From: Bacteroidota bacterium
GTDB lineage: Bacteria > Bacteroidota > Bacteroidia > Chitinophagales > Chitinophagaceae
Direction: 5' to 3'
NCBI GenBank assembly: GCA_013414745.1
Contig: CP058707.1
Location: 3,795,977-3,815,289, forward strand
Length of the DNA stretch: 19,313 nt
The first letter of the stretch is position 1, and each line of letters begins with the position of its first letter. Positions 395-19,103 of this stretch are shown piece after piece. The position numbers were made by a program, and so were the translations under genes. A model generated the notes under the pieces. That model did no database searches and was not told the origin of the DNA. It worked only from the letters and a program-made list of their open reading frames with translations.

Positions 395-425
395 CTATTT
401 TAGGACGATGCAAATGCTAGCTTTT

Positions 426-560
426 CTGCTAACGGTTTGCGGCTTGGCGTAGTGGCGGATTTTTAGCACAAATGTTCATACGAAGCACAAATGTTTGTTT
501 CATCACAAATGTTTCTGCGAAGCATGTCACCCGCCATTACGCCAAACCGCTGTTATATGC
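426..560 (-). repeat. attC-like recombination site a
   Basis: The outer arms GGCGTAGTGGCGG (446-458) and CCGCCATTACGCC (531-543) pair with one mismatch, flanked by CTGCTAAC (426-433) and GTTATATGC (552-560). The left end belongs to the truncated cassette at left, the right end to the VOC/MerC cassette, so the two do not match each other. The loop holds three imperfect copies of GCACAAATGTT (466-515). As in the other sites, the side next to CTGCTAAC carries four to five extra unpaired bases (GGTTT). Confidence 0.7.
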
Positions 561-582
561 TGCCCTTTTTCTGTCGTGTCCA

Positions 583-1191
583 TTAGCAACAATTTTCTCC
601 TGCTTGAATTGGTGGACATTTAACTGTCCCGTAACTGCAATATACACAACAGTCTCCTTGCAATGGTTTCAGTCGTGTCTTACATTGTTCGCATTCGTAA
701 AAATATACACAAGCGTCTGTCGGCATAATTTCAGTTTTCTTGTGTCCACAGTTTGGGCAAGTCAATGTTGATTGTGTTTCAACTGTCTTGCCGTTGTAAG
801 TTGTGCAAGTGTCGCAAGTTCCGTGCATTTTGTTTCGTTTATAGTTCCATATTGTCGCAATGAGAAGTCCGAACATTCCTGTGTAAAGAAAATATGTCCA
901 GTAATTGCTGTCGTTAAAGTGATAGGCATAAAAAATTAAAAGTCCACTTGGAATAGCTGTCAATAAAGGAAACAAACAACGATGTCTGCGATACGAAATG
1001 TAAAGTCCACCAACCGATATTAAAACCATTGCTTGGAAAATCCACATTGTCCACCCACCGAAAAGTTCAAAGCTCCCAAGTCCAAGTGCTGATGCTGCAA
1101 ATGCAAAAAGAGGAAAACAGCAAGGTGAAAATATTGCGGTCAAGAAAAGTCCAGCCGTTCCAATTTTGTCAATGTTACTTTTTAGTTTCAT
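583..1191 (-). CDS. MerC-like membrane protein fused to a GDCCVxC cysteine domain
   Basis: 202 residues. The N-terminal ~95 residues are hydrophobic with four probable membrane segments and the FSPCCFPLFA motif, the vicinal cysteine pair typical of MerC-type mercuric ion transport proteins. After a basic loop (NYKRNKMHG) comes a cytosolic-looking Cys-rich tail: a CDTC pair, a CPNCGHKKTE ribbon, CEQC and a GDCCVYCSYGTVKCPP motif, the signature of the small GDCCVxC (seleno)protein family (here the second catalytic position is Cys, not Sec). The fusion suggests metal capture and transfer across the membrane, perhaps of mercury or another soft metal (inference). It overlaps the 3' end of the VOC gene by 17 nt, so the two are co-transcribed. 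The frame is intact. Confidence 0.8.
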   Translation of the reverse strand: MKLKSNIDKIGTAGLFLTAIFSPCCFPLFAFAASALGLGSFELFGGWTMWIFQAMVLISVGGLYISYRRHRCLFPLLTAIPSGLLIFYAYHFNDSNYWTYFLYTGMFGLLIATIWNYKRNKMHGTCDTCTTYNGKTVETQSTLTCPNCGHKKTEIMPTDACVYFYECEQCKTRLKPLQGDCCVYCSYGTVKCPPIQAGENCC

Positions 1192-1549
1192 TTATTTCTT
1201 GTCCAAATTGAAGTAAATATCCGTTGTTGTCGTGAATGGCAAACTCTCTCATTCCATAGTCAAAATTTTCAACTGGGTAAGCAACGTTTGACTTATCTTT
1301 TATGTTGTTCCAAAGTTCATCAACTTGCTCAGTCTTGAAATAAAAAGAGCCTGTAAAAGTTGGCTTGTCAAATGGAATATGGTCGTTAGGTAATGAAAAC
1401 ATAATTTCTATGTTGTCAATGAACACAGAAGCCCAACCCCATTCAATTTCAAACGATTTGCACTTGAAACCAAGTGTTTGAACGTAAAAATCAACTGTCT
1501 CTTTCAGGTCAGTTGTGTAAAGCATTGGTGTCAATTTATCAAGTTTCAT
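1175..1549 (-). CDS. VOC-superfamily protein (glyoxalase/bleomycin-resistance fold)
   Basis: 124 residues, the usual length of a one-domain VOC protein. It opens LTPMLYTTDLKETVDFYVQTLGFKCK, the classic first beta-alpha-beta unit, followed by WASVFIDNIEIMFS and, near the end, REFAIHDNNGYLLQFGQ, matching the second half-module of glyoxalase/fosfomycin/bleomycin-resistance proteins. The glutamate/histidine metal ligands of glyoxalase I are not all evident, so substrate and catalysis are unknown; binding or sequestration of a small molecule is as likely. It is the first gene of its cassette, starting 28 bp from the cassette boundary, and its 3' end overlaps the MerC-like gene. Confidence 0.85.
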   Translation of the reverse strand: MKLDKLTPMLYTTDLKETVDFYVQTLGFKCKSFEIEWGWASVFIDNIEIMFSLPNDHIPFDKPTFTGSFYFKTEQVDELWNNIKDKSNVAYPVENFDYGMREFAIHDNNGYLLQFGQEINETKK

Positions 1550-1577
1550 TTCTTTGAGTATCGTGTCTTTTAGGGTT

Positions 1578-1711
1578 GCATATAACGTTCCGGGTATTGC
1601 CGAAGGCGGGGTGGGATAGTAGTGATATTTTTAATAGAACTAAACACCAAGCTTCAACAATATATCAAAGATAGAACCAAAACCCCGCTTTTGGCAATAC
1701 CATGTTGGCTG
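1578..1711 (-). repeat. attC-like recombination site b
   Basis: Arms GTATTGCC (1594-1601) and GGCAATAC (1693-1700) pair perfectly, with a further GCGGGGT/ACCCCGC pairing inside. Ends are GCATATAAC (1578-1586, own cassette at left) and GTTGGCTG (1704-1711, next cassette). Arm bases differ completely from sites d, e and g while the fold is kept. Confidence 0.7.
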
Positions 1712-2239
1712 TTAGTGTGCCTCTTGGCGGTTTTCCCATCAGCTGATTGAAATCCTGAATTTAAAATCTAACCATAAAGCAAGGCGGGCGTAGGAAATTC
1801 GTTAGGTGGCGCTTCAACTCCGCAACGAAAGAGTCAGAAAGTTCTTCATTTGTTATTCTCACCGTTAATGCCATGAAAGCGCCACGAGTTTCAATTCGTT
1901 GTGGGTATTGAATTCGAGTAACAGCGCCGATTTCCAATTTCTTGCGTTTTGGAATTCACTTTTTCGGTAACGCTATCGGTTTCTAAGAGAAGTTAAACCG
2001 GCGCGGAGTTGGGGAACGCTCACAATACGAGGTAGAAAATTCGGGTTAGTATCAAAACAGCGCCAAGCAAACACGCCTGTTTTTCTAAATGGGAACTGGT
2101 GATAAGTCCACAGTAACCAATTTTGGCGCGGTGACAGAGGTAGAAAACTGTCGGTTGGTCATTCTCTTGCCCGCCGATTTAAGGGTAGAAAATCACCGCC
2201 AAGTCTAAGCGTAATGGTGGTTCGCACATTACAGCCAAC
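1704..2239. mobile_element. Cassette 2: ORF-less cassette with nested inverted repeats
   Basis: No convincing gene on either strand; the one frame open in the sister copy is interrupted here by an early stop. The unit is closed by GTTGGCTGT/ACAGCCAAC. Inside are paired stems: CTTGGCGGT (1723-1731)/ACCGCCAAG (2195-2203); GGCGGGC (1783-1789)/GCCCGCC (2169-2175); GTGGCGCTT (1806-1814)/AAGCGCCAC (1877-1885); GCGCCGATTT (1924-1933)/AAACCGGCGC (1995-2004, one mismatch); GCGCCAA (2060-2066)/TTGGCGC (2123-2129). GGTAGAAAA occurs three times (2031, 2139, 2184). The whole could fold as a multibranch structure in RNA or single-stranded DNA. Confidence 0.6.
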
Positions 2240-2363
2240 GTTCCGGTATTGCCGAAGGCGGGGTGGGATAGTAGTTATATTTTTAGGAGAACTAAACACC
2301 AAGCATCAACAATTTTTCAAAGATAGAACCAAAACCCCGCTTTTGGCAATACCATGTTGGCTG
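2231..2363 (-). repeat. attC-like recombination site c
   Basis: Near-identical to site b (GTATTGCC/GGCAATAC arms, same loop family with AACTAAACACCAAGC). Ends are ACAGCCAAC (2231-2239) and GTTGGCTG (2356-2363), which here match because the cassettes on both sides are duplicates. Confidence 0.7.
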
Positions 2364-2901
2364 TTAGTGTGCCTCTTGGCGGTTTTCCCATCAGCTGTTT
2401 AAAATCCTGCATTTAAAATCTAACCACAAAGCAAGGCGGGCGTAGGAAATTCGTTAGGTGGCGCTTCAACTCCGCAACGAAAGAGTCAGAAAGTTCTTCA
2501 GTTGTTATTCTCACCTTTAATGCCATGAAAGCGCCACGAGTTTCAATTCGTTGTGGGTATTGAATTCGAGTTTTTAAGTCAAACAGCGCCGATTTCCAAT
2601 TTCTTGCGTTTTGGAATTCACTTTTTCGTTAACGTTATCGGTTTCTGTGAGAAGTCAAACCGGCGCGGAGTTGAGGAACGCTCACAATACTAGGTAGAAA
2701 ATTCGGGTTAGTGTCAAAACAGCGCCAAGCCAATCCGCCTGTTTTCTAAATGGGAACTGGTGATAAGTCCACAGTAACCAATTTTTGGCGCGGTGAAAGA
2801 GGTAGAAAACTGTCTGTTGGTCATTCTCTTGCCCGCCGATATATGGGTAGAAAATCACCGCCAAGTCTAAGCGTAATGGTGGTTCGCACATTACAGCCAA
2901 C
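2356..2901. mobile_element. Cassette 3: duplicate of the ORF-less cassette
   Basis: Almost the same sequence as the preceding cassette, with scattered substitutions and a short insertion near 2571-2584. All five stem pairs and the three GGTAGAAAA repeats (2693, 2801, 2846) are kept. A 72-codon minus-strand frame (2900-2682) is open here but stopped early in the sister copy, so I do not call it a gene. Bounded by GTTGGCTG (2356) and ACAGCCAAC (2893-2901). Confidence 0.6.
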
Positions 2902-3026
2902 GGTTTGGGGCTTTGCGTTCGGGCGGGATAGATGAGTAAAAATGATCATTAAGTAGTGATATTATAAGGAATTGTAAACTTCCGTTAGTAGTTGCCCCCG
3001 CCTGACGCAAAACCCCTGTTGTAAGT
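2893..3026 (-). repeat. attC-like recombination site d
   Basis: Arms TTTGCGTTCGGGCGGG (2912-2927) and CCCGCCTGACGCAAAA (2998-3013) pair apart from one bulge. Ends are ACAGCCAAC (2893-2901) and GTTGTAAG (3018-3025), belonging to different cassettes and not matching. The loop (AAAAATGATCATTAAG) is shared with site e. Confidence 0.75.
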
Positions 3027-3046
3027 AGTGCCGATTTGTCTTTTTG

Positions 3047-3808
3047 TCATTCCACCACCACCTTTCGCACTTGTCCTTCGCAGCGCAGTATATAAATTCC
3101 TTTTGCAAACCGACTTAAGTCTAATTCGTTTTCTTTGGTTCGTAGTAAGAGTTGACCGGAATGCGAATACAATTCTTTGGGAGCGTCTATGTTGCAACCT
3201 CGGATAATCAATCTTCCTGAAGTTGGATTAGGATACACCAAAAGGCTTTCAGATCTGGTGTTGGTATTCTCAACAGCTACCGGCCAACAGTTAATGCTTG
3301 TATCCTTTCCTAAATTGTAATTTGGTTGACAAGGTGGGTTTGTGGCACCACCTAAGGTATCTGGGAAACGCATACATTTAGGACACCAACTACACCCAAT
3401 ACCTTTATTATCCGGACTATCAATTACACTCATGGTTTTGCCCAACCCATTCCAATTACCAATATACAATTTGTCATCCCATCCTAAGTAGCCCATTGAA
3501 TAGCCCATAAAATAAGTTGAAATTGTATCAATCCCTGCCACATAGTACCATGCCGTACTGCTATCTGGGTCCCAGGTGTCGTATTGCTGAATATTGGTAT
3601 AATTAACGGTATAAATAAAACGGCCATTGGGTGAAAAACATAACCCTGTTGAATTTTTATCAGTTTGTTGAATTGGAATATTCAATTTGGTTTTATTGCT
3701 TAGTATTCCGGTACAACGATCAAAATCGGCCAGAAACAATTCATTGTGGCCATTATTGCAAGTGGCAGCAAATTTATTACCATCACGACTTAATTGTATT
3801 TGACCCAT
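3047..3808 (-). CDS. Gene A2 fragment: C-terminal propeller half and T9SS domain
   Basis: Longest intact piece of gene A2 (253 codons). It carries the blade-like strands LFLADFDRCTGILSNKTK and GLCFSPNGRFIYTVNYT, a Cys-rich CSWCPKCMRFPDT loop, and the sorting domain YPNPTSGRLIIRG ... FAKGIYILRCEGQVRKVVVE. The stop lies about 20 bp before site d. Confidence 0.75.
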   Translation of the reverse strand: MGQIQLSRDGNKFAATCNNGHNELFLADFDRCTGILSNKTKLNIPIQQTDKNSTGLCFSPNGRFIYTVNYTNIQQYDTWDPDSSTAWYYVAGIDTISTYFMGYSMGYLGWDDKLYIGNWNGLGKTMSVIDSPDNKGIGCSWCPKCMRFPDTLGGATNPPCQPNYNLGKDTSINCWPVAVENTNTRSESLLVYPNPTSGRLIIRGCNIDAPKELYSHSGQLLLRTKENELDLSRFAKGIYILRCEGQVRKVVVE

Positions 3809-4113
3809 TATTTCATAATACCCTCCGGAGTATTTTTTCTTGGATATGGAAAACTTTGTTTGCCGTAATTATAAACAGAATCTTTGGTGATTAAAAATGT
3901 ATAAACACTCACACTATCGTGCATCATTTTGAGCAACCACCAGTCTTTACCATTAGCATGACGGCAGGCCATCATTTGAGTTTTGCTGATATATTCTCCT
4001 TGAACAATGGGTTTCATACGTTCAACTACTTTACCTGCTCCTCCATTTGCCTTCGTGTTGATTTTATTGAGATAAAGCAAGTCAAATGGAGCCTTGTCGG
4101 TATTGGGAGCCAA
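3808..4113 (-). CDS. Gene A2 fragment: middle part
   Basis: About 100 codons joined downstream to the 253-codon fragment by a frameshift near 3810 and upstream to the N-terminal piece by one near 4155. It contains FDLLYLNKIN, GGAGKVVERMKPIVQGEY and HANGKDWWLLKM, the conserved middle motifs of this T9SS propeller-like family. Confidence 0.6.
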   Translation of the reverse strand: MAPNTDKAPFDLLYLNKINTKANGGAGKVVERMKPIVQGEYISKTQMMACRHANGKDWWLLKMMHDSVSVYTFLITKDSVYNYGKQSFPYPRKNTPEGIMK

Positions 4114-4530
4114 CCAAACATTATCTAAACAATACTCAGAACAACCTGAATTAATAAAAAATATATTGAATCATCTATAGGTAAAATTATCGATGATTGG
4201 GAATATCCGCTCCACCCATCATCAAAATCAAAAAAGCAGAATCCATTAATCGGTACCCCCATCAAGAAACTGTAAATCTATTCCCATTATACTGTAACCG
4301 TTGGTGCAAAATTGCATTTTGCCATTGCTGTCACAGATAGACGATGCACCAGGTGCTAAATATCTGCCGTGGGTTGAATCAATTTTAGTGTTCATTGTAC
4401 CACTTAAAGTAAATTCTGTTTTAAATGTTCTACCTGAACCGGTATACCATGTTTGGTTAAAATTTTTTGGGCCAAGGAAAGACCAACGCATGTTATTAGT
4501 TTTAAAAGAGTTAATAAAATTCTCATTCCT

Positions 4531-7440
4531 TTATAGTTTTATGAATTTGGTATGCCTTTTTTGGTCTCCGATTATAATTTGTAAATTGTAAATACCCTGA
4601 TGCAATGAAGAGACCTCTAATTCAGTTTTACCGTCATGGACAGGCAAGCACACATCTTTCACATTGTTTCCAGTCATATCAAATAAGCGTATGTTCATTT
4701 GCTTATGATCTAATGAAGTTTGAATATTTAATCTGTCTATGGCAGGATTTGGGTATATCAATATTTCAAATGCGTCTCCAAAGAGATCATTCTCTGAGTT
4801 ATCGCTTCTCAGATTCTTGTAGACGCCTACTGCATTGCAAATTTCAAGATCATTATAGGATAATCCTGGCTGGATATGCGCATATAAACTACGGGCTTTA
4901 TATACAGCGCTACCATTTACAAATGGGCAACTAAGTGCCAATTCTTCAAGTTGTTCAAAGTCAGCTGTTGTTAAATTCTGCCAGCCATGAGTCAATACAT
5001 CTAAATAAATTCGATTGAGGTCTTTTTCATAATTCTCAAATAATCGCCCTATCGGTAAAGCTGTATTTTCCTGGGTGACCTCCTGGATTAAGTTTTGAAA
5101 AATTGTACTGTCATTGAGTGTGTTTTCCTGACACAGAAAATGCATATTCATATCCAATGTGCGAATTTCATCGGTCAACAAAGATTCCTGATTGGCATAA
5201 AAAGCGTTTAGGAGTGGATAGGTCGCCCGAGCCACAGAATCGCGTCTTAGCCATTCATATACACGACGTTCATCGTACCATTCACTCAAATCGGTGTATT
5301 CTGGATAGTTTATGCTATCACCGGCGACACGTAAAGCTTCAACGATTTGACCGCTAGTCAGACTTTCTTCATTGATTTCTATAGGTAGGTCTTCACAGGT
5401 TAATAGATAATGAAAGGGATTGTTCAAACTAATGAAATAAGCCCCAAAAGATGTTTGTGTAGGAGTATCTACGGTAGAAGTACTTTGGCCTTGTACGATT
5501 TGCTGTGTATAGATTTTGTCTTGAAACAAAAATGAATTCGTAATTCTGAAGATTTCTCTCAAGTAAGTATTGCCAATTGCTTGTGAACTATTTGAAAATT
5601 GATTATTGTTATCATGGTTACCATCACCTATATTCCCAAAAGTTCCTTCGCTGCCTAAGTGATTAAACAACATACCTGATACATGGTAATCGAATAGGTT
5701 TCCTCTCACGGTGATTGGGTCGGCATGTGAACAATCTCCCACAACATAAAATCCATACCGGGTTTTGTGGGTTTCATTACATTTTAGCCCTATATCCCGG
5801 CTGTGAAACATGCGAAGCGCAAAAGCATTTCGTTCATTAAACACATTCACCAGAGGTTGCCCCGAGGCATCGGCAAACCCATACACTTTGTTGGCCTCTA
5901 ACATACCATCCCGGCTATTGCTCATTTCAATGCCGACTAATTCAGCCCGACACCAGCCACATGAATTATCGGGTGCCGCCGAGGTTGTTTGAAAGCGAAT
6001 TTCATTGTTGAATACTCGTAAGCCCTTACCGGCATTGCTAATACTGATACCGGTTCCTCCTAAATTTGGAATATTGATTTGATTTTGATTGATTTCATAC
6101 GGCGTTGTAGGAGAGTTAAATGGACGGAGTATAATGCCCTGTGCCCAATAATACAAGGTGCTGATGGGGCCATTCAGATAATAATCCCCAGTGAGGTTGA
6201 TTTCATTGTCGTTGATGAAGGTTTTACTGGTATTGCCCAAAACTTGAATGCCTATCATCACATCATTGAGAATATTGTGTTGTCCACCACCAAGTTGAGA
6301 AATCACATTTCCCGCTTCGATATATTGCCCATCGGCATTGCCGAACATAAAACCAAGGGGAGTACCTGAAGTTTGAGTGTTCTGAATATTGGCTCCAAAA
6401 TAACTTGTTACAATGGCTTTATCACAATTGCTAAAGCTGACTACATTCTGGTTACCATTCACAACTATGCGGTGTAAGTTCGTGATATTTAAAGGTGCCA
6501 CGGAGTAGGGTACGGCGTAAATACCTGCCCCTCGATGGGTGTTATACGTATTGCCGATTAACGTTGAATAATAAGCACCACCGGGTTGTATATCATCTTT
6601 AATGTTTTCAAATAGGTTGTTGTATATTTTTAAATTGTGGGCTTGATTTTGTGCACCAGGTTCAATGAAAATGCCAGTGTAAAGCTGTGTAAAGGTGTTT
6701 TTAACTGTAGTACTACCTAATACGCCAATTTCGACTTCGGAGCATTTGCTTAAACGTATCCCTAATTCCGGTTTAGACTGACTGGCATGGGGTGCTCGTA
6801 AGGGATTCCCACTTCCTGAAAATGTATTTCCCTGAATTTGACAAGTTCCATTGGTATTATTAAATCCTACAGGAGCCTGAATGATTTGTAGGGATGAATA
6901 ATTGTCAATAAATTGATTCCCCACAATGACGAGTTTTGCACCGATTGTAGATACAATACCATTTTCCATATCCTTCAAAGTTGAGTTGTCAACATGAATT
7001 TGTGAACTGACGTTACTGGCATAAATACCATCCCACATTGCACAGGAGGCTTGAAGCGTTGAGTTTTGAACAATATGCAAATTTTTACCGGCATTGACAG
7101 TTATCTTAGAACCTGTTGTAAAATAAATATCACATTGGTAGAAGGTTATATCCACATTAATAGTAAGTATACCATCGATATAAAATTTCTTGCCCTGAAT
7201 CACACCGCCACTACCGTAGTTAGCTAAAAGGTTGTTTGCGGTGAGGCTACTGACCTGTGAATTAGGCAACAGAATAATATTTGGCTGAGAAGCAATATTG
7301 GAACCTGCATTCTGGTTAGAGGTTGTGGAGCAGCAATGATTGGCATTGGGTTGGTATAAGGTAACAGAGGTTGATACAGAACACCCGTTTGCATCGGTAG
7401 CAATGATAGGGTATGTACTTGCATTGAGTCCAGTCAGCAC
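4531..7440 (-). CDS. Gene A1 fragment: second beta-helix, helical segment and T9SS domain
   Basis: 969 codons, the longest intact frame of the window. It starts inside the SprB-like repeat (LTGLNASTYPIIATDANGC), so the apparent start is not a real one. Beta-helix coils follow (WDGIYASNVSSQIHVDNSTL, GNQFIDNYSSLQI, KIYNNLFENI), then helices rich in Glu/Leu (EWYDERRVYEWLRRDSV), then IYPNPAIDRLNIQ ... LHQGIYNLQI ... KFIKL, the sorting domain. Confidence 0.8.
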   Translation of the reverse strand: MLTGLNASTYPIIATDANGCSVSTSVTLYQPNANHCCSTTSNQNAGSNIASQPNIILLPNSQVSSLTANNLLANYGSGGVIQGKKFYIDGILTINVDITFYQCDIYFTTGSKITVNAGKNLHIVQNSTLQASCAMWDGIYASNVSSQIHVDNSTLKDMENGIVSTIGAKLVIVGNQFIDNYSSLQIIQAPVGFNNTNGTCQIQGNTFSGSGNPLRAPHASQSKPELGIRLSKCSEVEIGVLGSTTVKNTFTQLYTGIFIEPGAQNQAHNLKIYNNLFENIKDDIQPGGAYYSTLIGNTYNTHRGAGIYAVPYSVAPLNITNLHRIVVNGNQNVVSFSNCDKAIVTSYFGANIQNTQTSGTPLGFMFGNADGQYIEAGNVISQLGGGQHNILNDVMIGIQVLGNTSKTFINDNEINLTGDYYLNGPISTLYYWAQGIILRPFNSPTTPYEINQNQINIPNLGGTGISISNAGKGLRVFNNEIRFQTTSAAPDNSCGWCRAELVGIEMSNSRDGMLEANKVYGFADASGQPLVNVFNERNAFALRMFHSRDIGLKCNETHKTRYGFYVVGDCSHADPITVRGNLFDYHVSGMLFNHLGSEGTFGNIGDGNHDNNNQFSNSSQAIGNTYLREIFRITNSFLFQDKIYTQQIVQGQSTSTVDTPTQTSFGAYFISLNNPFHYLLTCEDLPIEINEESLTSGQIVEALRVAGDSINYPEYTDLSEWYDERRVYEWLRRDSVARATYPLLNAFYANQESLLTDEIRTLDMNMHFLCQENTLNDSTIFQNLIQEVTQENTALPIGRLFENYEKDLNRIYLDVLTHGWQNLTTADFEQLEELALSCPFVNGSAVYKARSLYAHIQPGLSYNDLEICNAVGVYKNLRSDNSENDLFGDAFEILIYPNPAIDRLNIQTSLDHKQMNIRLFDMTGNNVKDVCLPVHDGKTELEVSSLHQGIYNLQIIIGDQKRHTKFIKL

Positions 7441-7880
7441 GGAGGGGTAAAGCTTACCTGTCCGGTACCGCCCGTGGTTAAAGGAATTATGATACCATTA
7501 TTCCCTGGTGTGCAAGTTGGGTTGGTTGTTGTTATGCTGGACCAAGATAAGGCTGGAGGTTCGGTGATAGTGAATTGAAAAGAATATGAACAGGACGTAT
7601 TTAATGAATCTGTGACTGTAAATGTATGAGTTCCTGTGGCAAGACTGACATTATTCGAAGTAGAAGTATTTCCGTCTATGTTTATAATATAATTTCCCGT
7701 TCCGCCTTTAACCAAATATTGGATAGAACCAAGTGAATTACCTGCGCAAGGGTTATTTTGAATCTTATAATAAACCGTGAACTTCTCATCCCATTTAATT
7801 TGGTCGTAATTGGGTTGTGGACAAGGATTTAAAGTGAATGTCGAAGAAGACGTAAGTCCATACGAGCAATTATTTCCCAA
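7434..7880 (-). CDS. Gene A1 fragment: SprB-like repeat region
   Basis: 148 codons: CSYGLTSSSTFTLNPCPQPN, then one complete SprB-like unit with GGTGNYIINIDGNTST, THTFTVTDSLNTSCSY and ITEPPALSW, and the start of a second (GGTGQVSFTP). The second unit continues in the next frame after a C-run at 7444-7447 that is one base short. Confidence 0.65.
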   Translation of the reverse strand: MGNNCSYGLTSSSTFTLNPCPQPNYDQIKWDEKFTVYYKIQNNPCAGNSLGSIQYLVKGGTGNYIINIDGNTSTSNNVSLATGTHTFTVTDSLNTSCSYSFQFTITEPPALSWSSITTTNPTCTPGNNGIIIPLTTGGTGQVSFTPPC

Positions 7881-8068
7881 TAAATATTACCTTGATTCCC
7901 GGAATAAGAATTTATCGCTTTATCCAAATAAAAGACATTTGAACCGCTAGAATTCTGCACATCCAGGTTATTTAGAGCCACCAATGAATTTGCGCCAAGA
8001 AGGAATTGTCCTTTGTTATTTATCTTACATGATCCTTGTTGAGCAGCTAAAAAGAGAATTGCTACCAC
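7829..8068 (-). CDS. Gene A1 fragment: linker between first beta-helix and SprB-like repeat
   Basis: About 79 codons: CKINNKGQFLLGANSLVALN followed by LDVQNSSGSNVFYLDKAINS and NQGNIYW. It is in the same frame as the upstream fragment, separated by TAA after GEKVAF; lengthening two T-runs would remove that stop. The downstream join to GNNCSYG needs one extra G at about 7878. Confidence 0.45.
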   Translation of the reverse strand: MVAILFLAAQQGSCKINNKGQFLLGANSLVALNNLDVQNSSGSNVFYLDKAINSYSGNQGNIYWEIIARMDLRLLRHSL

Positions 8069-8071
8069 TGA

Positions 8072-11172: not shown

Positions 11173-11507
11173 ATTGGCTACATGATACCACGCAGTAGAA
11201 CTATCAGGGTCCCAAGTATCATATTGCTGTATATTGGTATAATTAATGGAATAAATAAAACGTCCATTGGGTGAAAAACAAAGACCGGTGGAGTATTTGT
11301 CAATAGGTTCATTAGCTGAGGCAGGAAAGTTTGTCGGAAGTATAGGTATATTTTCTTAGTCTTATTTGAAAGTTGTCCTGTACAACGATCAAAATCGGCA
11401 AGAAAAAGTTCATTATGACCATTATTGCATGTAGCTGCAAATTTTTTGCCATCAGGACTTAATTGGATTTGTCCCATATTCTCCCAAAGACATTATTAGT
11501 GCCAGTT

Positions 11508-11786
11508 TTACGGGGATACGGAAAGCTTTGTTTCCCATGGTTGTAAACGGAATCTTTGGTAATTAAAAATGTATACACTGACACTATCATGCATCATTTT
11601 GAGCAACCACCAGTCCCTTCCATTGGCGTGTTTACAAGCCATCATTTGAGTTTTACTGATAAATTCTCCTTGAACGATAGGTTGCATACGTTCAATCACT
11701 TTTCCAGCACCACCATTCGCTTTCAAGTTGATTTTATTGAGATAAAGTAAGTCAAATGGAGATTTATTTGAACTGGAGCTAGCCAA
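11508..11786 (-). CDS. Gene B2 fragment: middle part
   Basis: 92 codons: SPFDLLYLNKINLKANGGAG, KVIERMQPIVQGEF, HANGRDWWLLKMMHDSVSVY, then off frame. Conservative differences from A2 (Lys/Arg, Val/Ile) show a real diverged copy and not simple sequencing noise. Confidence 0.55.
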   Translation of the reverse strand: MASSSSNKSPFDLLYLNKINLKANGGAGKVIERMQPIVQGEFISKTQMMACKHANGRDWWLLKMMHDSVSVYIFNYQRFRLQPWETKLSVSP

Positions 11787-12190
11787 ACAGTATTTAATTG
11801 GTTTTCAGAGCATCCTGAATTAATTAAATATATAATTGTGTCGTCAATTGGTAAGAAAATAGATGATTGCGAATATTACTATAACCATTATAAAAATCAA
11901 AATAGGTAGAATCCATTAATCGATCCCCCATTTAAATAATTCAAGTCATCGCCAAAAATACTGAACCGTTACTGCAAAGTAGCATATTTCCATTGCTGTC
12001 ACAGACAGAGGATGAGCCGGAATCAAAATATTTGTTCTTAAAGAATCAATCTTAGTATTGGTTGTTCCAGATAAAGAAATATAGAACGTTCTTCCCGCTC
12101 CAGTATACCAAATTTTATTGAAATTTTCTTGGGCACAACTAATTGAGTAAGTGGAAAATTACACAAAACAATATCGCACATTTCATAATT

Positions 12191-12634
12191 TTAAATTTTA
12201 ATGAATTTTGAATATTCAACCTTGTGATTTAGTTGAATTCGTATACTATATATTCCAGGGGTCAGAAAAGAAACTGGTAAATTAATCTTTCCATTTTGTA
12301 AATTATTCTTCAAATTCAATACTTGTACTGAAGTCATGTTAAAAACCTGAATTTGAACCGAACCTTCACTTTGTGGGAAAGAAATTTGCAACTCTGAGTG
12401 CGTTGGATTGGGATACACGATAATATTTGAGGATTCCTCATCGTTAATTCCATCTGTAGAATTCCCTAAACTACTTTTATAAACGCCTACTGCATTGCAA
12501 ATTTCAAGATCATTATAGGATATGCCTGGATGGATGTGCGCATATAAACTACGGGCTTTATATACAGCGCTACCATTTACAAATGGGCAACTAAGTGCCA
12601 ATTCTTCAAGTTGTTCAAAGTCCGCTGAAGACAA
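12191..12634 (-). CDS. Gene B1 fragment: T9SS type A sorting domain
   Basis: 147 codons. FEQLEELALSCPFVNGSAVY and LEICNAVGVYK match A1 closely; the remaining ~95 residues do not. The YPNP box, the QVFNMTSVQV strand and the GIYSIRI...SKFIKI end are all present, so it is a complete sorting domain of another sequence type. Confidence 0.75.
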   Translation of the reverse strand: MSSADFEQLEELALSCPFVNGSAVYKARSLYAHIHPGISYNDLEICNAVGVYKSSLGNSTDGINDEESSNIIVYPNPTHSELQISFPQSEGSVQIQVFNMTSVQVLNLKNNLQNGKINLPVSFLTPGIYSIRIQLNHKVEYSKFIKI

Positions 12635-13081
12635 AGATTGCCAACCCTGTGTCAGAACACTAAATAAATTCGATTGAGGTCTTTTTCATAATTCTCAAAT
12701 AATCGCCCTATCGGTAAGGCTGTATTTTCCTGGGTTACCTCCTGGATTAAGTTTTGAAAAATTGTACTGTCATTGAGTGTGTTTTCCTGACACAGAAAAT
12801 GCATATTCATATCCAATGTGCGAATTTCATCGGTCAATAAAGATTCCTGATTGGCATAAAATGCGTTTAATAGTGGATAAGTTGCCCTTGCCACAGAATC
12901 GCGTCTTAACCATTCATATATCGACGTTCATCGTACCACTCACTCAAATCGGTGTATTCCGGATAGTTAATGCTGTCACCAGCGACACGTAAAGCTTCAA
13001 TGATTTGACCGCTAGTCAGACTTTCTTCATTGATTTCTATTGGAAGGTCTTCACAAGTTAATAAATTGTGGTTACTTCCGT

Positions 13082-14143
13082 TCAGAGTAATATCATAGGC
13101 CCCTTGAAGGCCAATATTTGATCTACTTTGAATTTGATTAATTTGTAGTGTATGAATTTGACTAATAAATGATGCAGAATCCTGAACAATTCTCTCTCTC
13201 TCAAGTAAGTATTGCCAATTGCTTGTGAACTATTTGAAAATTGATTATTGTTATCATGGTTCAGATTCCCTATATTTCCAAAAGTTCCTTCACTGCCTAA
13301 GTGGTTAAACAGCATACCTGATACATGGTAATCGAATAAGTTTCCTCTCACGGTGAGTGGGTCGGCATGTGAACAATCTCCCACAACATAAAATCCATAC
13401 CGGGTTTTGTGGGTTTCATTACATTTTAGCCCTATATCCCGGCTGTGAAACATGCGAAGCGCAAAAGCATTTCGTTCATTAAACACATTCACCAGAGGTT
13501 GCCCCGAGGCATCGGCAAACCCATACACTTTGTTGGCCTCTAACATACCATCCCGGCTATTGCTCATTTCAATGCCGACTAATTCAGCCCGACACCAGCC
13601 ACATGAATTATCGGGTGCCGCCGAGGTTGTTTGAAAGCGAATTTCATTGTTGAATACTCGTAAGCCCTTACCGGCATTGCTAATACTGATACCGGTTCCT
13701 CCTAAATTTGGAATATTGATTTGATTTTGATTGATTTCATACGGCGTTGTAGGAGAGTTAAATGGACGGAGTATAATGCCCTGTGCCCAATAATACAAGG
13801 TGCTGATGGGGCCATTCAGATAATAATCCCCAGTGAGGTTGATTTCATTGTCGTTGATGAAGGTTTTACTGGTATTGCCCAAAACTTGAATGCCTATCAT
13901 CACATCATTGAGAATATTGTGTTGTCCACCACCAAGTTGAGAAATCACATTTCCCGCTTCGATATATTGCCCATCGGCATTGCCGAACATAAAACCAAGG
14001 GGAGTACCTGAAGTTTGAGTGTTCTGAATATTGGCTCCAAAATAACTTGTTACAATGGCTTTATCACAATTGCTAAAGCTGACTACATTCTGGTTACCAT
14101 TCACAACTATGCGGTGTAAGTTCGTGATATTTAAAGGTGCCAC
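13082..14143 (-). CDS. Gene B1 fragment: second beta-helix
   Basis: 353 codons, virtually identical to A1 up to NTYLRE, then off frame. Repairing the frame near 13200 gives RIVQDSASFISQIHTLQINQ, a patch that differs from A1 (RITNSFLFQDKIYTQQIVQG) before identity resumes at LLTCEDLPIE. Confidence 0.7.
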   Translation of the reverse strand: MAPLNITNLHRIVVNGNQNVVSFSNCDKAIVTSYFGANIQNTQTSGTPLGFMFGNADGQYIEAGNVISQLGGGQHNILNDVMIGIQVLGNTSKTFINDNEINLTGDYYLNGPISTLYYWAQGIILRPFNSPTTPYEINQNQINIPNLGGTGISISNAGKGLRVFNNEIRFQTTSAAPDNSCGWCRAELVGIEMSNSRDGMLEANKVYGFADASGQPLVNVFNERNAFALRMFHSRDIGLKCNETHKTRYGFYVVGDCSHADPLTVRGNLFDYHVSGMLFNHLGSEGTFGNIGNLNHDNNNQFSNSSQAIGNTYLRERELFRILHHLLVKFIHYKLIKFKVDQILAFKGPMILL

Positions 14144-14612
14144 GGAGTAGGGTACGGCGTAAATACCTGCCCCTCGATGGGTGTTATACGTATTGCCGAT
14201 TAACGTTGAATAATAAGCACCACCGGGTTGTATATCATCTTTAATGTTTTCAAATAGGTTGTTGTATATTTTTAAATTGTGGGCTTGATTTTGTGCACCA
14301 GGTTCAATGAAAATGCCAGTGTAAAGCTGTGTAAAGGTGTTTTTAACTAGTACTACCTAATACGCCAATTTCGACTTCGGAGCATTTGCTTAAACGTATC
14401 CCTAATTCCGGTTTAGACTGACTGGCATGGGGTGCTCGTAAGGGATTCCACTTCCTGAAAATGTATTTCCCTGAATTTGACAAGTTCCATTGGTATTATT
14501 AAACTTATAGGAGCCTGAATGATTTGTAGGGATGAATAATTGTCAATAAATTGATTCCCCACAATGACGAGTTTTGCACCGATTGTAGATACAATACCAT
14601 TTTCCATATCCT

Positions 14613-15077
14613 TCAAAGTTGAGTTGTCAATATGAATTTGTGAACTGCATTACTCGCATAGATTCCATCCCACATAGCACAAGAGGCTTGAAGCGTTGAG
14701 TTTTGAACAATATGCAAATTTTTACCGGCATTGACAGTTATCTTAGAACCTGTTGTAAAATAAATATCACATTGATTGAACATAATATTATCATCAATAG
14801 TAAGTATACCATCGATATAAAATTTCTTGCCCTGAATCACACCGCCACTACCGTAGTTAGCTAAAAGGTTGTTTGCGGTGAGGCTACTGACCTGTGAATT
14901 AGGCAACAGAATAATATTTGGCTGAGAAGCAATATTGGAACCTGCATTCTGGTTAGAGGTTGTGGAGCAGCAATGATTGGCATTGGGTTGGTATAAGGTA
15001 ACAGAGGTTGATACAGAACACCCGTTTGCATCGGTAGCAATGATAGGGTATGTACTTGCATTGAGTCCAGTCAGCAC
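14613..15077 (-). CDS. Gene B1 fragment: SprB-like repeat end and start of second beta-helix
   Basis: 154 codons identical to A1 from LTGLNASTYPIIATDANGC to SCAMWDGIYASN save for one short replaced strand (TIDDNIMFNQCDIYF against A1 TINVDITFYQCDIYF). Ends at a short deletion near 14646. Confidence 0.6.
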   Translation of the reverse strand: MLTGLNASTYPIIATDANGCSVSTSVTLYQPNANHCCSTTSNQNAGSNIASQPNIILLPNSQVSSLTANNLLANYGSGGVIQGKKFYIDGILTIDDNIMFNQCDIYFTTGSKITVNAGKNLHIVQNSTLQASCAMWDGIYASNAVHKFILTTQL

Positions 15078-15134
15078 GGAGGGGTAAAGCTTACCTGTCC
15101 GGTACCGCCTGTGGTTAAAGGAATTATGATACCA

Positions 15135-15347
15135 TTATTCCCTGGTGTGCAAGTTGGTTGTTGTTATGCTGGACCAAGATAAGGCTGGAGGTTCGGTGAT
15201 AGTGAATTGAAAAGAATATGAACAGGACGTATTTAATGAATCTGTGACTGTAAATGTATGAGTTCCTGTGGCAAGACTGACATTATTCGAAGTAGAAGTA
15301 TTTCCGTCTATGTTTATAATATAATTTCCCGTTCCGCCTTTAACCAA
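15135..15347 (-). CDS. Gene B1 fragment: SprB-like repeat
   Basis: 70 codons with GGTGNYIINIDGNTST, THTFTVTDSLNTSCSY and ITEPPALSW. A 4-base deletion near 15156 relative to copy A (one GGTT unit of a tandem run) shifts the frame. Confidence 0.5.
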   Translation of the reverse strand: MVKGGTGNYIINIDGNTSTSNNVSLATGTHTFTVTDSLNTSCSYSFQFTITEPPALSWSSITTTNLHTRE

Positions 15348-15700
15348 ATATTGGATAGAACCAAGTGAATTACCTGCGCAAGGGTTATTTTGAATCTTAT
15401 AATAAACCGTGAACTTCTCATCCCATTTAATTTGGTCGTAATTGGGTTGTGGACAAGGATTTAAAGTGAATGTCGAAGAAGACGTAAGTCCATACGAGCA
15501 ATTATTTCAATAAATATTACCTTGATTCCCGGAATAAGAATTTATCGCTTTATCCAAATAAAAGACATTTGAACCGCTAGAATTCTGCACATCCAGGTTA
15601 TTTGAGCCACCAATGAATTTGCGCCAAGAAGGAATTGTCCTTTGTTATTTATCTTACACGATCCTTGTTGAGCAGCTAAAAAGAGAATTGCTACCACTGA

Positions 15701-15982
15701 TTAAAAAGCGACTTTTTCACCAATGTATATTTCTGGTGGCAAAGTTGATAACACACCACCCGGGTAATTGTAATTTTCATAAATACTGGTTCGGAAAGTT
15801 GAGCTATCCGGAATTTCAAAATTGGCATAAGTTGATGAGTTATTTATAGTTGGTGGTCCAATATTAAATGGTTTATTCACTGATGCTGTGACCAGTATTG
15901 TCTGACCCGTCCCTGCATTGTAGTCATAGTAAGAATGTGAATTATTATAAGTAAAAATCATATTCTTGTCTAACTTAAACAA
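15701..15982 (-). CDS. Gene B1 fragment: tail of first beta-helix
   Basis: 93 codons from within the frame: FKLDKNMIFTYNNSHSYYDY, ANFEIPDSSTFRTSIYENYN, ending GEKVAF at the same stop seen in A1. The upstream part of this frame is broken by a one-base deletion near 16112. Confidence 0.5.
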   Translation of the reverse strand: MFKLDKNMIFTYNNSHSYYDYNAGTGQTILVTASVNKPFNIGPPTINNSSTYANFEIPDSSTFRTSIYENYNYPGGVLSTLPPEIYIGEKVAF

Positions 15983-16396
15983 ACTGGGAGTGCATGGGTC
16001 TATACTACCATTTAAAATAACACCCGCAGCTTTAATATTTTTAACTTCAGACGTGTTATTATTAAAAGTTGTCTTGCCCTGAAATTTGCAGCCTACAAAT
16101 ACAATTCCATTAGTGTGCTATTGTAATCTTCAAAATGATTGTTTTCATAATTAATCGTACAATCTTTAAAAAGGGCGTATTTGGAAGTATCCACATTGGC
16201 CGCATCTCGGGTAAAAAGATATATTGGTGATTTAGCATGATTAACCGTAAATGTGCATTCATCAAAAACATTTGCTGACAATGGTTGTGGGAATAAAATA
16301 ATTTATTGTAATTCTGGTGCTGATGATTGCCATTGATTAAAAGTGGTCCCAAACCATCATCTTCAAGAAAAGTAACTTTGCTAAATTTGGGTTGGT

Positions 16397-17347
16397 CTAA
16401 GGCGCTATTCGGATAACACCCCTCCAAAATGAGCCTACTATTGTGTCCCCTTCGAAGGTTACATTCAATCCATTGGATTCAACCGTGGCTTGTGTGCCAG
16501 GGCTCCAGGCTATTTGCAGTGAAATATCGTCGTAATCGGCGTAGTAGGAATTCTTTGATGTGATCCATTGAGAAACAAAATCTGCGTTTGGGTTTGATGG
16601 ATGAATTATTGAGAGGATGGTCAAAGCATGGGCATAGGAATATTTCACGTTACACTCTTCAATTACAATCTGGCTGCAACCATCGAGTGGAGCGTTTGGT
16701 GGCAAATAGCCGTTTGGTTCTATATCGATGCCCGTTGCCGGTGCATTAGCCAGGATTTTTCCACCAACGGCAGAATCCTGACCAGTATTAAGTATGTCGC
16801 ACTCTAATAGTTTGATATATTTTCCGGCACTGATTGAAATCCCAATACGGGAATTGTTATTGCAGTCAATATTCTGGAACAAATTGTAAGCTAACCCGGC
16901 ACTTTGGTCTTTTGTTAGAAAATTGGGAAACACTGTTCCACTAATTGTGTCTACTGCAATCTCACCATTAATCGTTATTCCATCCAAACAGAAATGATTG
17001 AAATTGCAATCAGAAACATTAAAATTCTTATTGTACCCGTCTATCCTCAGTCCAGAGGCCGCGACCTGAATATCATTAATAGAATCTCCTAGACCATTTG
17101 GAACACCACCATTATTGCTCCCTCCAATTATCATATTGCTATTATTACCATCACCTTCAATATTGGAAAGAATTATATTTTCGCACTTGGTAAAATTGAA
17201 CAAAGTACCCGGGGTGGCCGGATCAATTGATGGATCACAAATAATTGGCGTATTATTCGCATCAAAACACCCGTACTTCTGGCCGCCTGCAAATTTGAAA
17301 ATGGAAGCTGGTGAGCCCACAGAATCCAAAGCACCGGTAATGCTCAA
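16397..17347 (-). CDS. Gene B1 fragment: first beta-helix
   Basis: 316 codons almost identical to A1 (one N-for-E change in DGYNKNFNVSDCNFNHF is among the few differences). The apparent start is internal; a lost C at about 17357 separates it from FSFSEC. Confidence 0.7.
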   Translation of the reverse strand: MSITGALDSVGSPASIFKFAGGQKYGCFDANNTPIICDPSIDPATPGTLFNFTKCENIILSNIEGDGNNSNMIIGGSNNGGVPNGLGDSINDIQVAASGLRIDGYNKNFNVSDCNFNHFCLDGITINGEIAVDTISGTVFPNFLTKDQSAGLAYNLFQNIDCNNNSRIGISISAGKYIKLLECDILNTGQDSAVGGKILANAPATGIDIEPNGYLPPNAPLDGCSQIVIEECNVKYSYAHALTILSIIHPSNPNADFVSQWITSKNSYYADYDDISLQIAWSPGTQATVESNGLNVTFEGDTIVGSFWRGVIRIAP

Positions 17348-17492
17348 ATTCCTACATTCGAAAAGCTAAAAACCATTTTCGATGGATAGCTGATTGATGC
17401 ATCCTGAATATTGATTAAATAATTTCCTGAAGGAATATTCAAATCGACCTTCCCTTGACGTTGATTTATAAAATTTGATGCAAAATATCCAC

Positions 17493-17813
17493 TTAATACA
17501 TCATTGCTTGAGCCATTACCTTCGGCGCAAAAATCGGTTTTAAATCCAAATGAAGAATAGAATCCCCATTGTTGTTCGTTGAATCATTGGCAGAATTATA
17601 ATACACCGAATACGGCAAGTGATTTGTAATAGTAAGCGTATCGGAATCTGAAGCACCGAGTGTTGAACCTGTTGTTATTTCAGCAATAATTTCATAAGAG
17701 CCTGGTTGCACATTTGTAAAACTGTCCCATTTCCCATCAGCTGTATTACCTAATAAACTAATAGAAGGCATTGTACTAAGTGATGAAGTTGATCCAGATG
17801 TCGAGTCAATCAC
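17493..17813 (-). CDS. Gene B1 fragment: N-terminal domain
   Basis: 106 codons that read through the point where A1 is frameshifted (SFTNVQPGSYEIIAEITTG), which fixes the correct reading of both copies. It goes off frame in an A/T-run near 17540. Confidence 0.6.
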   Translation of the reverse strand: MIDSTSGSTSSLSTMPSISLLGNTADGKWDSFTNVQPGSYEIIAEITTGSTLGASDSDTLTITNHLPYSVYYNSANDSTNNNGDSILHLDLKPIFAPKVMAQAMMY

Positions 17814-17833
17814 TATTGAATTTTGTTTTAGTT

Positions 17834-18046
17834 TTAGTTTGTAGAATTCAGTCGTTTGATTCGGGTTAACAATAAAAGTTGAACACTGATTTTGGCGTTA
17901 GATTGGGAACATGCTGATTTGGTTTGATAAACATGGCATGCTATGGTAGTTTGAGCACGCAAGAAATTACCGTCAGACAGGAATATCAAGAAAAGAAACA
18001 AAGCGCAGAACGCAATCAAAAACGGAGGCTTACAGGCAAATCTCAT
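17834..18046 (-). CDS. Gene B1 fragment: signal peptide
   Basis: 70 codons; residues 1-57 are identical to A1. The frame is lost where copy B has AAAA (17875-17878 region) and copy A has AAAAA. Confidence 0.6.
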   Translation of the reverse strand: MRFACKPPFLIAFCALFLFLIFLSDGNFLRAQTTIACHVYQTKSACSQSNAKISVQLLLLTRIKRLNSTN

Positions 18047-18159
18047 AAAGGATGGTATTTAAATTCTAAGTTAATGAAAATAGGAATAAGATTATCAGCA
18101 AGAACTAAAAAAATTTCATATGAGCGAAGAATTTTCAGCGAGTAGTAAACCCGGCATTA

Positions 18160-18295
18160 CTTACAACGGGCCTTGGCTTTGCGTTCGGTGTGGGATAGAA
18201 AGTACTTCAGTTCAAATTTTGCACAAAAGCTAATTGAAACTACAAATGTTCAACCTAGTACATTAGCCACACTGACGCAAAACCAATGTTAGCAG
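18160..18295 (-). repeat. attC-like recombination site f
   Basis: Arm GTTCGGTGTGG (18183-18193) opposes CCACACTGAC (18267-18276). Compared with sites d, e and g, GGCGGG:CCCGCC has changed on both sides to GTGTGG:CCACAC, so pairing is kept. Ends are CTTACAAC (18160-18167) and GTTAGCAG (18288-18295). The loop contains GCACAAAAGC and ACAAATGTTC, like sites a and g. Confidence 0.7.
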
Positions 18296-18977
18296 CAGGT
18301 AAATTCTCAAGGTCTTTTAATTTTAGAGTAAATTAATTCTTTTACAAATAAGTGATTATCTAACTGTAATCTGAATTTAAGTAGTCCAAATTTCAATGAA
18401 AAGTATGTCTGGCAAAAATTTGGATTAATTAAATCGTGATACCTCAGAGTTCTCATAGACTGCGTCGTATGTTTGTCCCTTTATATTCAAGCTATCATGA
18501 ATTTTATTTGCGATATTTACTTCTTGAGTATAATAATTTTTATTTATAAATCGATCCTCGTGATCCGCATTCCGGTCTTGCCGAAAGATGAAACCGGAGT
18601 TGTAATTATTATTGAGGCTGAGATACCATTACTACCACCCCAAGCTTCAAAGTTATAATCGAAGTAATTGCTATCTATATTATTGTTTCTACTCTGGAAA
18701 TAAAGTTTTCTATTCTCAATAATATAATGGTCTTCTTCTTGTGAATGCACCGGATCGAAGGTAAATAAATAATTATGTGTTAAAACAGTGTATCAATTCT
18801 ATTCGTACTAGAATCTTGATATACAAATACGCTACCAGTGTCAATTGTAATAAAATTCAAAATTTGGCCATGGAAAAGTTGATTTTTATCTTTTTTACTA
18901 CAAGAATAGATAAAGATGGACGAAAGAATTAATAGTCTAATTGTACGGTATTTCATGTCGAATTACTTGCTGCTAAC
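18288..18977 (-). mobile_element. Cassette 6 (lipoprotein gene)
   Basis: Bounded by GTTAGCAGCAGGTAAATTC (18288-18306) and GAATTACTTGCTGCTAAC (18960-18977), inverted copies over 18-19 bp with one mismatch and one gap. One minus-strand gene fills it almost completely. Confidence 0.7.
18308..18956 (-). pseudogene. Secreted lipoprotein gene, repaired across three frameshifts
   Basis: ATG 18956 gives MKYRTIRLLILSSIFIYSC-SKK, a lipoprotein signal with the lipobox cysteine at residue 19 and no Asp at +2. The frame meets TAA at 18780-18782 after 58 codons; one more T restores it (LTHNYLFTFDPVHSQEEDHY, then NNNIDSNYFDYNFEAWGG). A second shift near 18572 leads to NADHEDRFINKNYYTQEVNI and IKGQTYDAVYENSEV, and a third near 18425 to CQTYFSLKFGLLKFRLQLDN and a TGA at about 18308. 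About 215 residues. The 'GxTYDxVYE ... YFSxKxGLxKF' pattern is common in Bacteroidota cell-surface lipoproteins of unknown function. Frames agree in composition and order, so I am fairly sure it is one gene. Confidence 0.65.
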
Positions 18978-19103
18978 GGTTTGGGGCTTTGCGTTCGGGC
19001 GGGTTTCGGAGCACAAAAGTTCAATTTATTACTAAAGTTCATTAGAAGCACTAAGCTTCAAGTTTGCACGTCAGCCCGCCTGACGCAAAACCCGTGTTAT
19101 GCC
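18970..19103 (-). repeat. attC-like recombination site g
   Basis: TTTGCGTTCGGGCGGG (18988-19003) opposes CCCGCCTGACGCAAAA (19075-19090). Ends CTGCTAAC (18970-18977) and GTTATGCC (19096-19103). The loop has GCACAAAAGTTC, shared with sites a and f. Confidence 0.75.

What the first reader, a model, noticed from the sequence alone, without database searches (positions are those of the whole stretch)
426..19103. Integron-like array: cassette ends, not site ends, are the inverted pairs
Seven ~130-bp palindromic sites separate cassettes. In all six complete cassettes the first bases equal the reverse complement of the last bases before the next site: GTTATATGC/GCATATAAC; GTTGGCTGT/ACAGCCAAC (twice); GTTGTAAG/CTTACAAC (twice); GTTAGCAGC/GCTGCTAAC. 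Within one site the two ends disagree whenever the neighbouring cassettes differ (a, b, d, f, g) and agree only between duplicate cassettes (c, e). This is what excision and insertion through circular cassettes at a G^TT point predicts for attC sites. The matches here run 14-19 bp, longer than the 7-bp consensus GTTRRRY, which these ends fit only loosely. All genes point the same way (minus), so an integrase, if present, should lie right of the window.
Basis: partly seen in the sequence, partly recalled or inferred. Interest (0 to 1): 0.85.

Follow-up and report, generated by a model that had tools for sequence, protein, structure and literature searches.

The report
Giant gene-cassette array without standard integrase
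A stretch making up about an eighth of this bacterium's chromosome is a one-way shelf of some 350 exchangeable gene cassettes, built like the integrons that collect resistance genes in other bacteria, but its likely recombination enzyme lacks the part thought essential for that job, and the same set-up recurs in many other Bacteroidota.

Summary
The seven sites belong to 348 one-orientation hairpin sites spanning 507 kb (11.9% of the genome). In 327 of 347 cassettes the start pairs with that cassette's own end (at most 42 in 1000 permutations). Site arms covary, and copies of a cassette break at G^TT. This is integron logic. No IntI scores over the cut-off here. It lacks the ~41-residue IntI insertion carrying helix I2. 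Relatives sit beside such sites in other Bacteroidota (29 of 80 loci), cassettes always reading away from the enzyme, next to a conserved attI-like junction (27 of 94 loci; 0 of 278 controls). Across 198 genomes the sites track this enzyme (61/68 versus 41/130), not IntI (22/57 versus 80/141). Nearly all sites also lack the extrahelical base that I2 reads. Best explanation: integron-like cassette capture by an I2-less, Xer-like recombinase. The cited maximum for integrons is 301 cassettes and 3% of a genome. Recombination itself is inferred. In this assembly the enzyme gene is interrupted near its start and attI is off consensus.

The parts
431..554 (-). site a (attC-like hairpin, AAC..GTT)
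555..1583 (-). cassette a-b: MerC-like/GDCCVxC protein (583-1191) and glyoxalase-family protein (1175-1549), ends GTTATATGC/GCATATAAC
1584..1706 (-). site b
1707..2236 (-). cassette b-c: about 530-bp body, member of a 56-copy family in the array, no long ORF
2237..2358 (-). site c
2359..2898 (-). cassette c-d: second copy of the same 56-copy family
2899..3020 (-). site d
3021..10541 (-). cassette d-e, 7.5 kb, pieces with type IX secretion sorting domains, reading frame interrupted in this assembly
10542..10663 (-). site e
10664..18164 (-). cassette e-f, near-duplicate of d-e (82-100% identity in the ungapped blocks listed)
18165..18290 (-). site f
18291..18974 (-). cassette f-g, small ORF (68 aa, 18544-18750), no family match
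18975..19098 (-). site g
19099..19313 (-). last (3') part of a cassette whose start lies to the right of the window; its end adjoins site g

Best explanation
The window is a slice of a 507-kb integron-like cassette array in a Bacteroidota chromosome. Each cassette is gene(s) plus a hairpin site (attC analogue) whose outer stem is completed by the cassette's own first bases when it is a circle. A tyrosine recombinase of an Xer-like family without the IntI helix-I2 insertion inserts circles at an attI-like site beside its gene, or removes them, by strand exchange at G^TT, probably on one folded DNA strand. Shown by computation: array, polarity, end pairing, covariation, breakpoints, linkage of the enzyme family to the sites, and the attI-like junction in relatives. 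Inferred: that this enzyme performs the reaction, that the substrate is a folded single strand, and that the system is active today.
For: 348/348 sites in one orientation over 507,282 bp. End rule 327/347 versus a permutation maximum of 42, repeated in 18 other arrays: 97/128 versus a permutation maximum of 20. Arm covariation 88.4% Watson-Crick versus 57.1% with arms shuffled between sites. Breakpoints at CG|TT averaged over 48 (5') and 49 (3') copy clusters. Longest open frame, if at least 100 codons, in the array direction in 215/223 cassettes. Recombinase 3.3 kb beyond the last site. Of 80 enzyme loci fetched by the enzyme alone, 29 have R1 sites at E<=1e-4, cassettes reading away from the enzyme in 29 of 29, setting aside opposite-strand shadows of stronger hits (my reading); of 20 IntI neighbourhoods 1 does (Fisher p 0.006). 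attI-like TTGCGTATATATAAGA|GTT within 4 mismatches in 27/94 enzyme loci versus 0/278 control draws, polarity 27/27. The cassette start predicted from the first site's R'' lies 40-215 bp from the gene, exactly, in 12 of 19 arrays, against 1 of 332 when another array's R'' is used. Enzyme-site co-occurrence OR 18.9, p 6e-16; IntI-site OR 0.48. A whole cassette shared with a genome of another family, placed first after the enzyme there. Bottom strand folds more stably in 150/150.
Against: No recombination was observed. In this genome the match to P0001 crosses three stop codons near its N-terminus, though the catalytic core is open (371 codons); the database relative P0001 (91% identical) is open. 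This genome's attI junction does not match the consensus and lies 2.6 kb from the gene. 20/347 intervals here and 31/128 elsewhere break the rule. 51 of 80 enzyme loci had no R1 hit at E<=1e-4. 7 of 68 enzyme-bearing genomes show no sites, and 34 of 102 site-bearing genomes show neither enzyme. 67 of 94 enzyme loci show no attI within 4 mismatches. One locus (L194) has the opposite polarity. 4 sites lie near an IntI gene in L172. The co-occurrence test is not corrected for relatedness of the genomes.
Confidence: 0.85

Rival explanations
1. Ordinary IntI integron reduced to a CALIN: true attC sites that were assembled by an IntI now lost or acting from another cell, and the nearby Xer-like recombinase is a bystander.
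For: IntI over the cut-off is in 57/198 genomes of the phylum sample, 22 of them with R1 sites. Site logic is attC-like. 34 genomes have sites and neither enzyme.
Against: IntI is in 1 of 49 own-class genomes and that one has no sites, while 41 of 49 have sites (counted from the lists). Sites associate with the I2-less enzyme (OR 18.9) and not with IntI (OR 0.48). A conserved attI-like junction with correct polarity adjoins the I2-less gene. Only 2 of 20 IntI neighbourhoods hold any R1 hit, one of them weak. A base extra on the R''-L'' arm was seen in 2 of 257 sites.
Confidence: 0.1
2. Chromosomal Xer (XerC/XerD) modules, like pdif modules: host dimer resolvases move the cassettes and the linked recombinase is secondary.
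For: The enzyme family is Xer-like (best NCBIfam NF040815 XerA; nearest folds XerA and archaeal Xer, with IntI4 close behind).
Against: The sites are 86-127-nt hairpins with cassette-specific outer stems, not short dif-like duplexes. Three of the genome's four other PF00589 recombinases were put in the tree and fall outside the site-linked group, L003 on a long branch of unsure place. Arrays end at the linked enzyme with fixed polarity.
Confidence: 0.04
3. Interspersed REP-like or transposon-borne palindromes that merely punctuate duplicated genes.
For: Sites are palindromic and some cassettes are multi-copy (56 and 25 copies).
Against: The 70 matches of one core motif all fall in the array, 70 forward and 0 reverse. 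End pairing belongs to cassettes, not sites. Breakpoints fall at the same base across 48 copy clusters. Unrelated genomes show the same architecture beside one enzyme family.
Confidence: 0.01

Closest known systems
Sedentary chromosomal integrons (superintegrons) of Vibrio with IntIA and VCR attC sites
   Same: Same-direction cassette array; hairpin sites; R'/R'' complementarity; G^TT exchange point; platform at the upstream end; hundreds of cassettes; bottom strand distinct from top by fold.
   Different: Integrase lacks the IntI insertion with helix I2 (93-96 versus 131-135 residues between motifs). Nearly all sites lack an extrahelical base on the R''-L'' arm and instead have a spacer loop of 1-2 nt against 5 nt and a conserved A-C mismatch. 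Cassettes reach 12 kb. 348 sites and 11.9% of the genome, against a cited maximum of 301 cassettes and 3% (PMC11023631, passages).
XerA/XerH/XerD-type tyrosine recombinases (NF040815, PDB 5hxy, 4a8e)
   Same: Catalytic-domain sequence and fold; P0001 scores 222.3 bits against the 220-bit cut-off of NF040815.
   Different: Genes sit at the head of cassette arrays beside an attI-like junction; many carry an extra N-terminal stretch before the SAM-like domain; the site-linked set groups apart from the three other recombinases of this genome that were tested.
CALINs (attC clusters lacking IntI)
   Same: attC-like array with no IntI nearby.
   Different: Here another recombinase is repeatedly linked and the arrays have an attI-like head.
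pdif/Xer resistance modules of Acinetobacter (recalled; one abstract start seen in the listing)
   Same: Xer-family enzyme suspected, gene modules flanked by recombination sites.
   Different: No hairpin sites with cassette-specific outer stems and no dedicated integrase are recalled for those modules.

Membership tests
Integron (IntI type) | Array of cassettes separated by imperfect palindromic attC sites whose R'' and R' belong to neighbouring cassettes | tested here: met
   327/347 own cassette ends pair versus 32/348 within sites
Integron (IntI type) | IntI integrase with the additional domain (helix I2) | tested here: not met
   IntI4 residues 206-246 have no counterpart in the query; 43/43 site-linked enzymes 93-96 residues versus 19/19 IntI 131-135; no TIGR02249 match over the cut-off in the genome
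Integron (IntI type) | attI beside the integrase gene, cassettes reading away from it | tested here: met
   Met in relatives: 27/94 loci with the consensus, polarity 27/27, predicted junction 40-215 bp from the gene in 12/19 arrays exactly; in this genome the junction is off consensus and 2.6 kb away
Integron (IntI type) | Extrahelical bases on the R''-L'' arm of attC | tested here: not met
   With an ungapped 10-bp stem and a free inner loop, the 5' arm carries an extra base in 2 of 257 sites; 194 have 3x3 and 61 have 3x4 internal loops with the extra base on the other arm
Integron (IntI type) | Unpaired central spacer and variable terminal loop in attC | tested here: met
   3' spacer 5 nt in 237/257 facing 1-2 nt; sites 86-127 nt through the terminal part
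Integron (IntI type) | Single-strand (bottom) attC recombination catalysed by the integrase | not testable with these tools
   Only consistent: bottom strand more stable in 150/150 folds
NF040815 XerA-like recombinase | Score over the NCBIfam cut-off of 220 bits | tested here: inconclusive
   P0001 222.3, P0008 204.7, P0054 204.2
XerC / XerD | Score over TIGR02224 (335.15) or TIGR02225 (329.6) cut-offs | tested here: not met
   P0001 177.6 and 166.1 bits
pdif modules | Short dif-like duplex sites flanking modules | tested here: not met
   Sites are 86-127-nt hairpins with cassette-specific outer stems; the dif definition is recalled

The most novel reading that the evidence does not exclude
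A second lineage of integrons, widespread in the Bacteroidota, that recombines hairpin cassette sites with an Xer-like enzyme never equipped with helix I2. Either it arose independently, with strand choice set by the lopsided spacer and the conserved mismatch instead of extrahelical bases, or it preserves the state before IntI gained I2.
Probability: 0.6. Interest if true: 0.93.

Novelty: new variant of a known kind. Interest (0 to 1): 0.87.

Why it matters
Helix I2 is held to be what turned Xer-like recombinases into single-strand (integron) recombinases (PMC7790495, abstract and passages). A natural family that appears to move attC-like hairpins without I2, on sites that nearly all lack the bases I2 reads, makes that claim directly testable. 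It also gives the Bacteroidota, where complete IntI integrons were reported only sparsely (PMC9024848, section 3.1), a cassette-capture system: in the 49 own-class genomes sampled, 41 carry the sites and 1 carries IntI. Surveys keyed to IntI would probably file these arrays as CALINs or miss them. The array itself, 348 sites and about an eighth of the chromosome, exceeds the cited maximum for integrons (301 cassettes, 3%).

Tried and rejected

Limits: the 257 sites behind the covariation count were first chosen for arm pairing, so 88% is inflated; the shuffle control and the 85 extra sites found later by a sequence profile are the safer part. In one search most copy pairs came from the 56- and 25-copy families, so repeats the test with each cluster weighted once. 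The 20 stretches (118 hits) were chosen because enzyme and sites were already known to be near each other, so they are not a test of linkage; the 80 loci are. The 43 'site-linked' rows of the tree are 28 of the named loci (L122 with a weaker site hit included; L089 and L102 left out as near-copies), 14 unnamed loci and this genome; L187 and L189 are short open frames. One of 20 IntI loci (L171, fused frame) was left out. The tree used the quick method; site group support 82, IntI 99. The genome's fifth PF00589 match (L005) was not put in the tree. R1 scored at most 17 candidates per genome. Literature: ten searches of an open-access library without preprints showed no description of an I2-less integron in the listings seen; [quoted passage not shown] So 'not in print' is unproven.
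Full report
OBSERVATION. The seven sites and the cassette-end rule are in the sequence. The window lies at C1:3,795,977-3,815,289 of a 4,268,816-bp single-contig genome. A core-motif search gave 70 forward and 0 reverse matches, all between 3.479 and 3.982 Mb, with 1 match of the reversed control motif. I fetched 540 kb. A sequence profile found 348 non-overlapping sites, all on the minus strand, 3,475,217-3,982,496: 507,282 bp, 11.9% of the genome. Site-to-site distance has a median of 696 bp and a maximum of 12.1 kb.

END RULE. With at most one mismatch in GTT+6, 327 of 347 cassettes pair their own start and end, against 32 of 348 when the two ends of one site are compared, 8.3% of all other pairings, and at most 42 in 1000 permutations. 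The rule holds for long cassettes too: 17 of 18 above 5 kb. Position 11 of the start is A in 326 of 327 rule-obeying cassettes and matches the other end in only 18%. In 18 arrays from other genomes 97 of 128 intervals obey, against 16 of 146 within sites and a permutation maximum of 20. Missed sites may explain some failures; I did not check each.

SITE STRUCTURE. Read in array direction, a site is AAC - A - N + 10-bp stem - 3-nt loop - 6-bp stem - terminal part - the mirror, with a 5-nt spacer before GTT. In 95 distinct arm sets 88.4% of cells are Watson-Crick, against 57.1% (SD 1.2, maximum 61.0) when 3' arms are dealt to other sites. The 3' spacer is 5 nt in 237 of 257 and faces 1-2 nt. The inner loop ends in an A facing C in most sites. 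A base extra on the R''-L'' arm, the classical extrahelical base (PMC2727003, passages), is seen in 2 of 257. The bottom strand of the circle form is the more stable fold in 150 of 150 cassettes drawn from those obeying the rule, by 5.0 kcal/mol on average, and the circle form is more stable than the array form in 145 of 150 on that strand.

BREAKPOINTS AND EXCHANGE. 206 of 347 cassette bodies fall in 51 copy clusters. With each cluster weighted once, identity between non-adjacent copies jumps from 0.51 to 0.99 at CG|TT on the 5' side (48 clusters) and falls from 1.00 to 0.52 and then 0.32 just after the TT on the 3' side (49 clusters), so the unit that moves is cassette plus its downstream site. 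The longest open frame runs in the array direction in 215 of 223 cassettes where it reaches 100 codons. One 905-bp cassette (C1:3,839,609-3,840,513) matches over its full length, at 85.5%, the first cassette after the recombinase in genome G002, of another family. Shared sequence begins at the GTT, and their sites differ by paired changes (TATTGCC/GGCAATA against TATTGGC/GCCAATA).

RECOMBINASE. The genome has no IntI over the cut-off. A tyrosine recombinase lies at L070:5783-6898, minus, 3.3 kb beyond the last site. Against IntI4 its residues 284 and 285 are contiguous where IntI4 has 206-246. Its closest database relative P0001 is 91% identical. P0001 scores 222.3 bits for NF040815 (XerA-like; cut-off 220) and 189.9 for TIGR02249 (cut-off 265), the latter in two pieces. 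A scan of GTDB genomes returned 80 relatives (more exist). 29 of them have R1 sites at E<=1e-4, each time with cassettes reading away from the gene, setting aside weaker opposite-strand shadows (my reading). 43 of 43 site-linked enzymes have 93-96 residues between two catalytic motifs, 19 of 19 IntI have 131-135. In a quick tree the site-linked set is one group (support 82) and IntI another (99).

attI. The first site's R'' predicts the start of the first cassette. A start 70-210 bp from the recombinase gene was found in 15 of the 18 arrays that gave one, some with one mismatch and two with a second candidate; the others are L080 at 534 bp, G033 at 1080 bp and this genome at 2608 bp; L145 gave none. 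As a control, an exact start 40-215 bp from the gene occurs in 12 of 19 arrays with their own R'' and in 1 of 332 trials with another array's. Many junctions share TTGCGTATATATAAGA|GTT. Scanning 94 enzyme loci: at most 4 mismatches in 27, against 0 of 278 control draws from the same loci, with orientation right in 27 of 27; 18 of these 27 were not among the loci the consensus was read from, some being their close relatives.

DISTRIBUTION. In one set of 198 genomes of the phylum, sites are in 102, the enzyme in 68, IntI in 57. Sites occur in 61/68 enzyme-bearing and 41/130 other genomes (OR 18.9, p 6e-16), but in 22/57 IntI-bearing and 80/141 other genomes (OR 0.48); relatedness is not corrected for. 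Around 20 IntI genes (19 genomes) 5 R1 hits were found, 4 of them in one locus. At E<=1e-4, 29 of 80 enzyme loci and 1 of 20 IntI loci hold a site. Counted from the lists, the own class has sites in 41, the enzyme in 32 and IntI in 1 of 49.

MECHANISM. The anatomy is that of an integron: circles integrate beside the recombinase at attI or elsewhere at sites, exchange at G^TT, and each insertion leaves a site made of two cassettes' R boxes. I infer a folded bottom strand from the covariation, the single-cassette outer stem and the strand bias. I infer that the I2-less enzyme is the catalyst from linkage, polarity, attI and co-occurrence. How it would choose the strand and avoid a second exchange without I2 is open; the lopsided spacer and the A-C mismatch are candidates.

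AGAINST. See the Against line. Chiefly: no direct recombination data; this genome's enzyme gene is interrupted near its start in the assembly and its attI is off consensus, with an insertion-sequence-like gene pair between (named by eye); 34 genomes carry sites with neither enzyme; R1 misses many enzyme loci.

LITERATURE. Ten searches of an open-access library and passages or sections of nine papers did not show this system described. IntegronFinder 2 reports complete integrons in Bacteroidetes proper only from Salinibacter ruber (PMC9024848, section 3.1). Subscription papers and preprints were not searchable.

Noticed in passing
window 1707-2236 and 2359-2898: A cassette of about 535 bp without a long ORF is present in 56 copies in the array; another of about 394-444 bp in 25 copies. 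They look like multiplying, gene-less cassettes.
   Followed up: partly
window 3021-10541 and 10664-18164: A 7.5-kb cassette carrying protein pieces with type IX secretion sorting domains is duplicated in tandem; both copies have interrupted frames in this assembly.
   Followed up: partly
window 583-1549: A cassette pairs a MerC-like protein carrying a GDCCVxC domain with a glyoxalase-family protein.
   Followed up: no
L070 4050-5040: An insertion-sequence-like gene pair (IS30-like by eye, no family search) lies between the array head and the recombinase.
   Followed up: no
L070 5783-6960: The recombinase frame is interrupted near the N-terminus, by eye at a run of one base, and cassette genes show similar breaks; sequencing error and real decay cannot be told apart here.
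   Followed up: partly
198-genome phylum sample: IntI over the cut-off is in 57 of 198 genomes, 56 of them outside the window's class, more than the published rarity in Bacteroidetes would suggest.
   Followed up: no
one search sets: 34 genomes carry the sites with neither IntI nor the I2-less enzyme at the thresholds used.
   Followed up: no
P0001 42-122: Many family members carry an N-terminal stretch of about 75 residues before the SAM-like domain with no confident Pfam match in the library used; some site-linked open frames are too short to hold it.
   Followed up: no
window 1-430: Sequence left of site a belongs to a cassette that starts in the window and ends outside it; its genes were not examined.
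   Followed up: no
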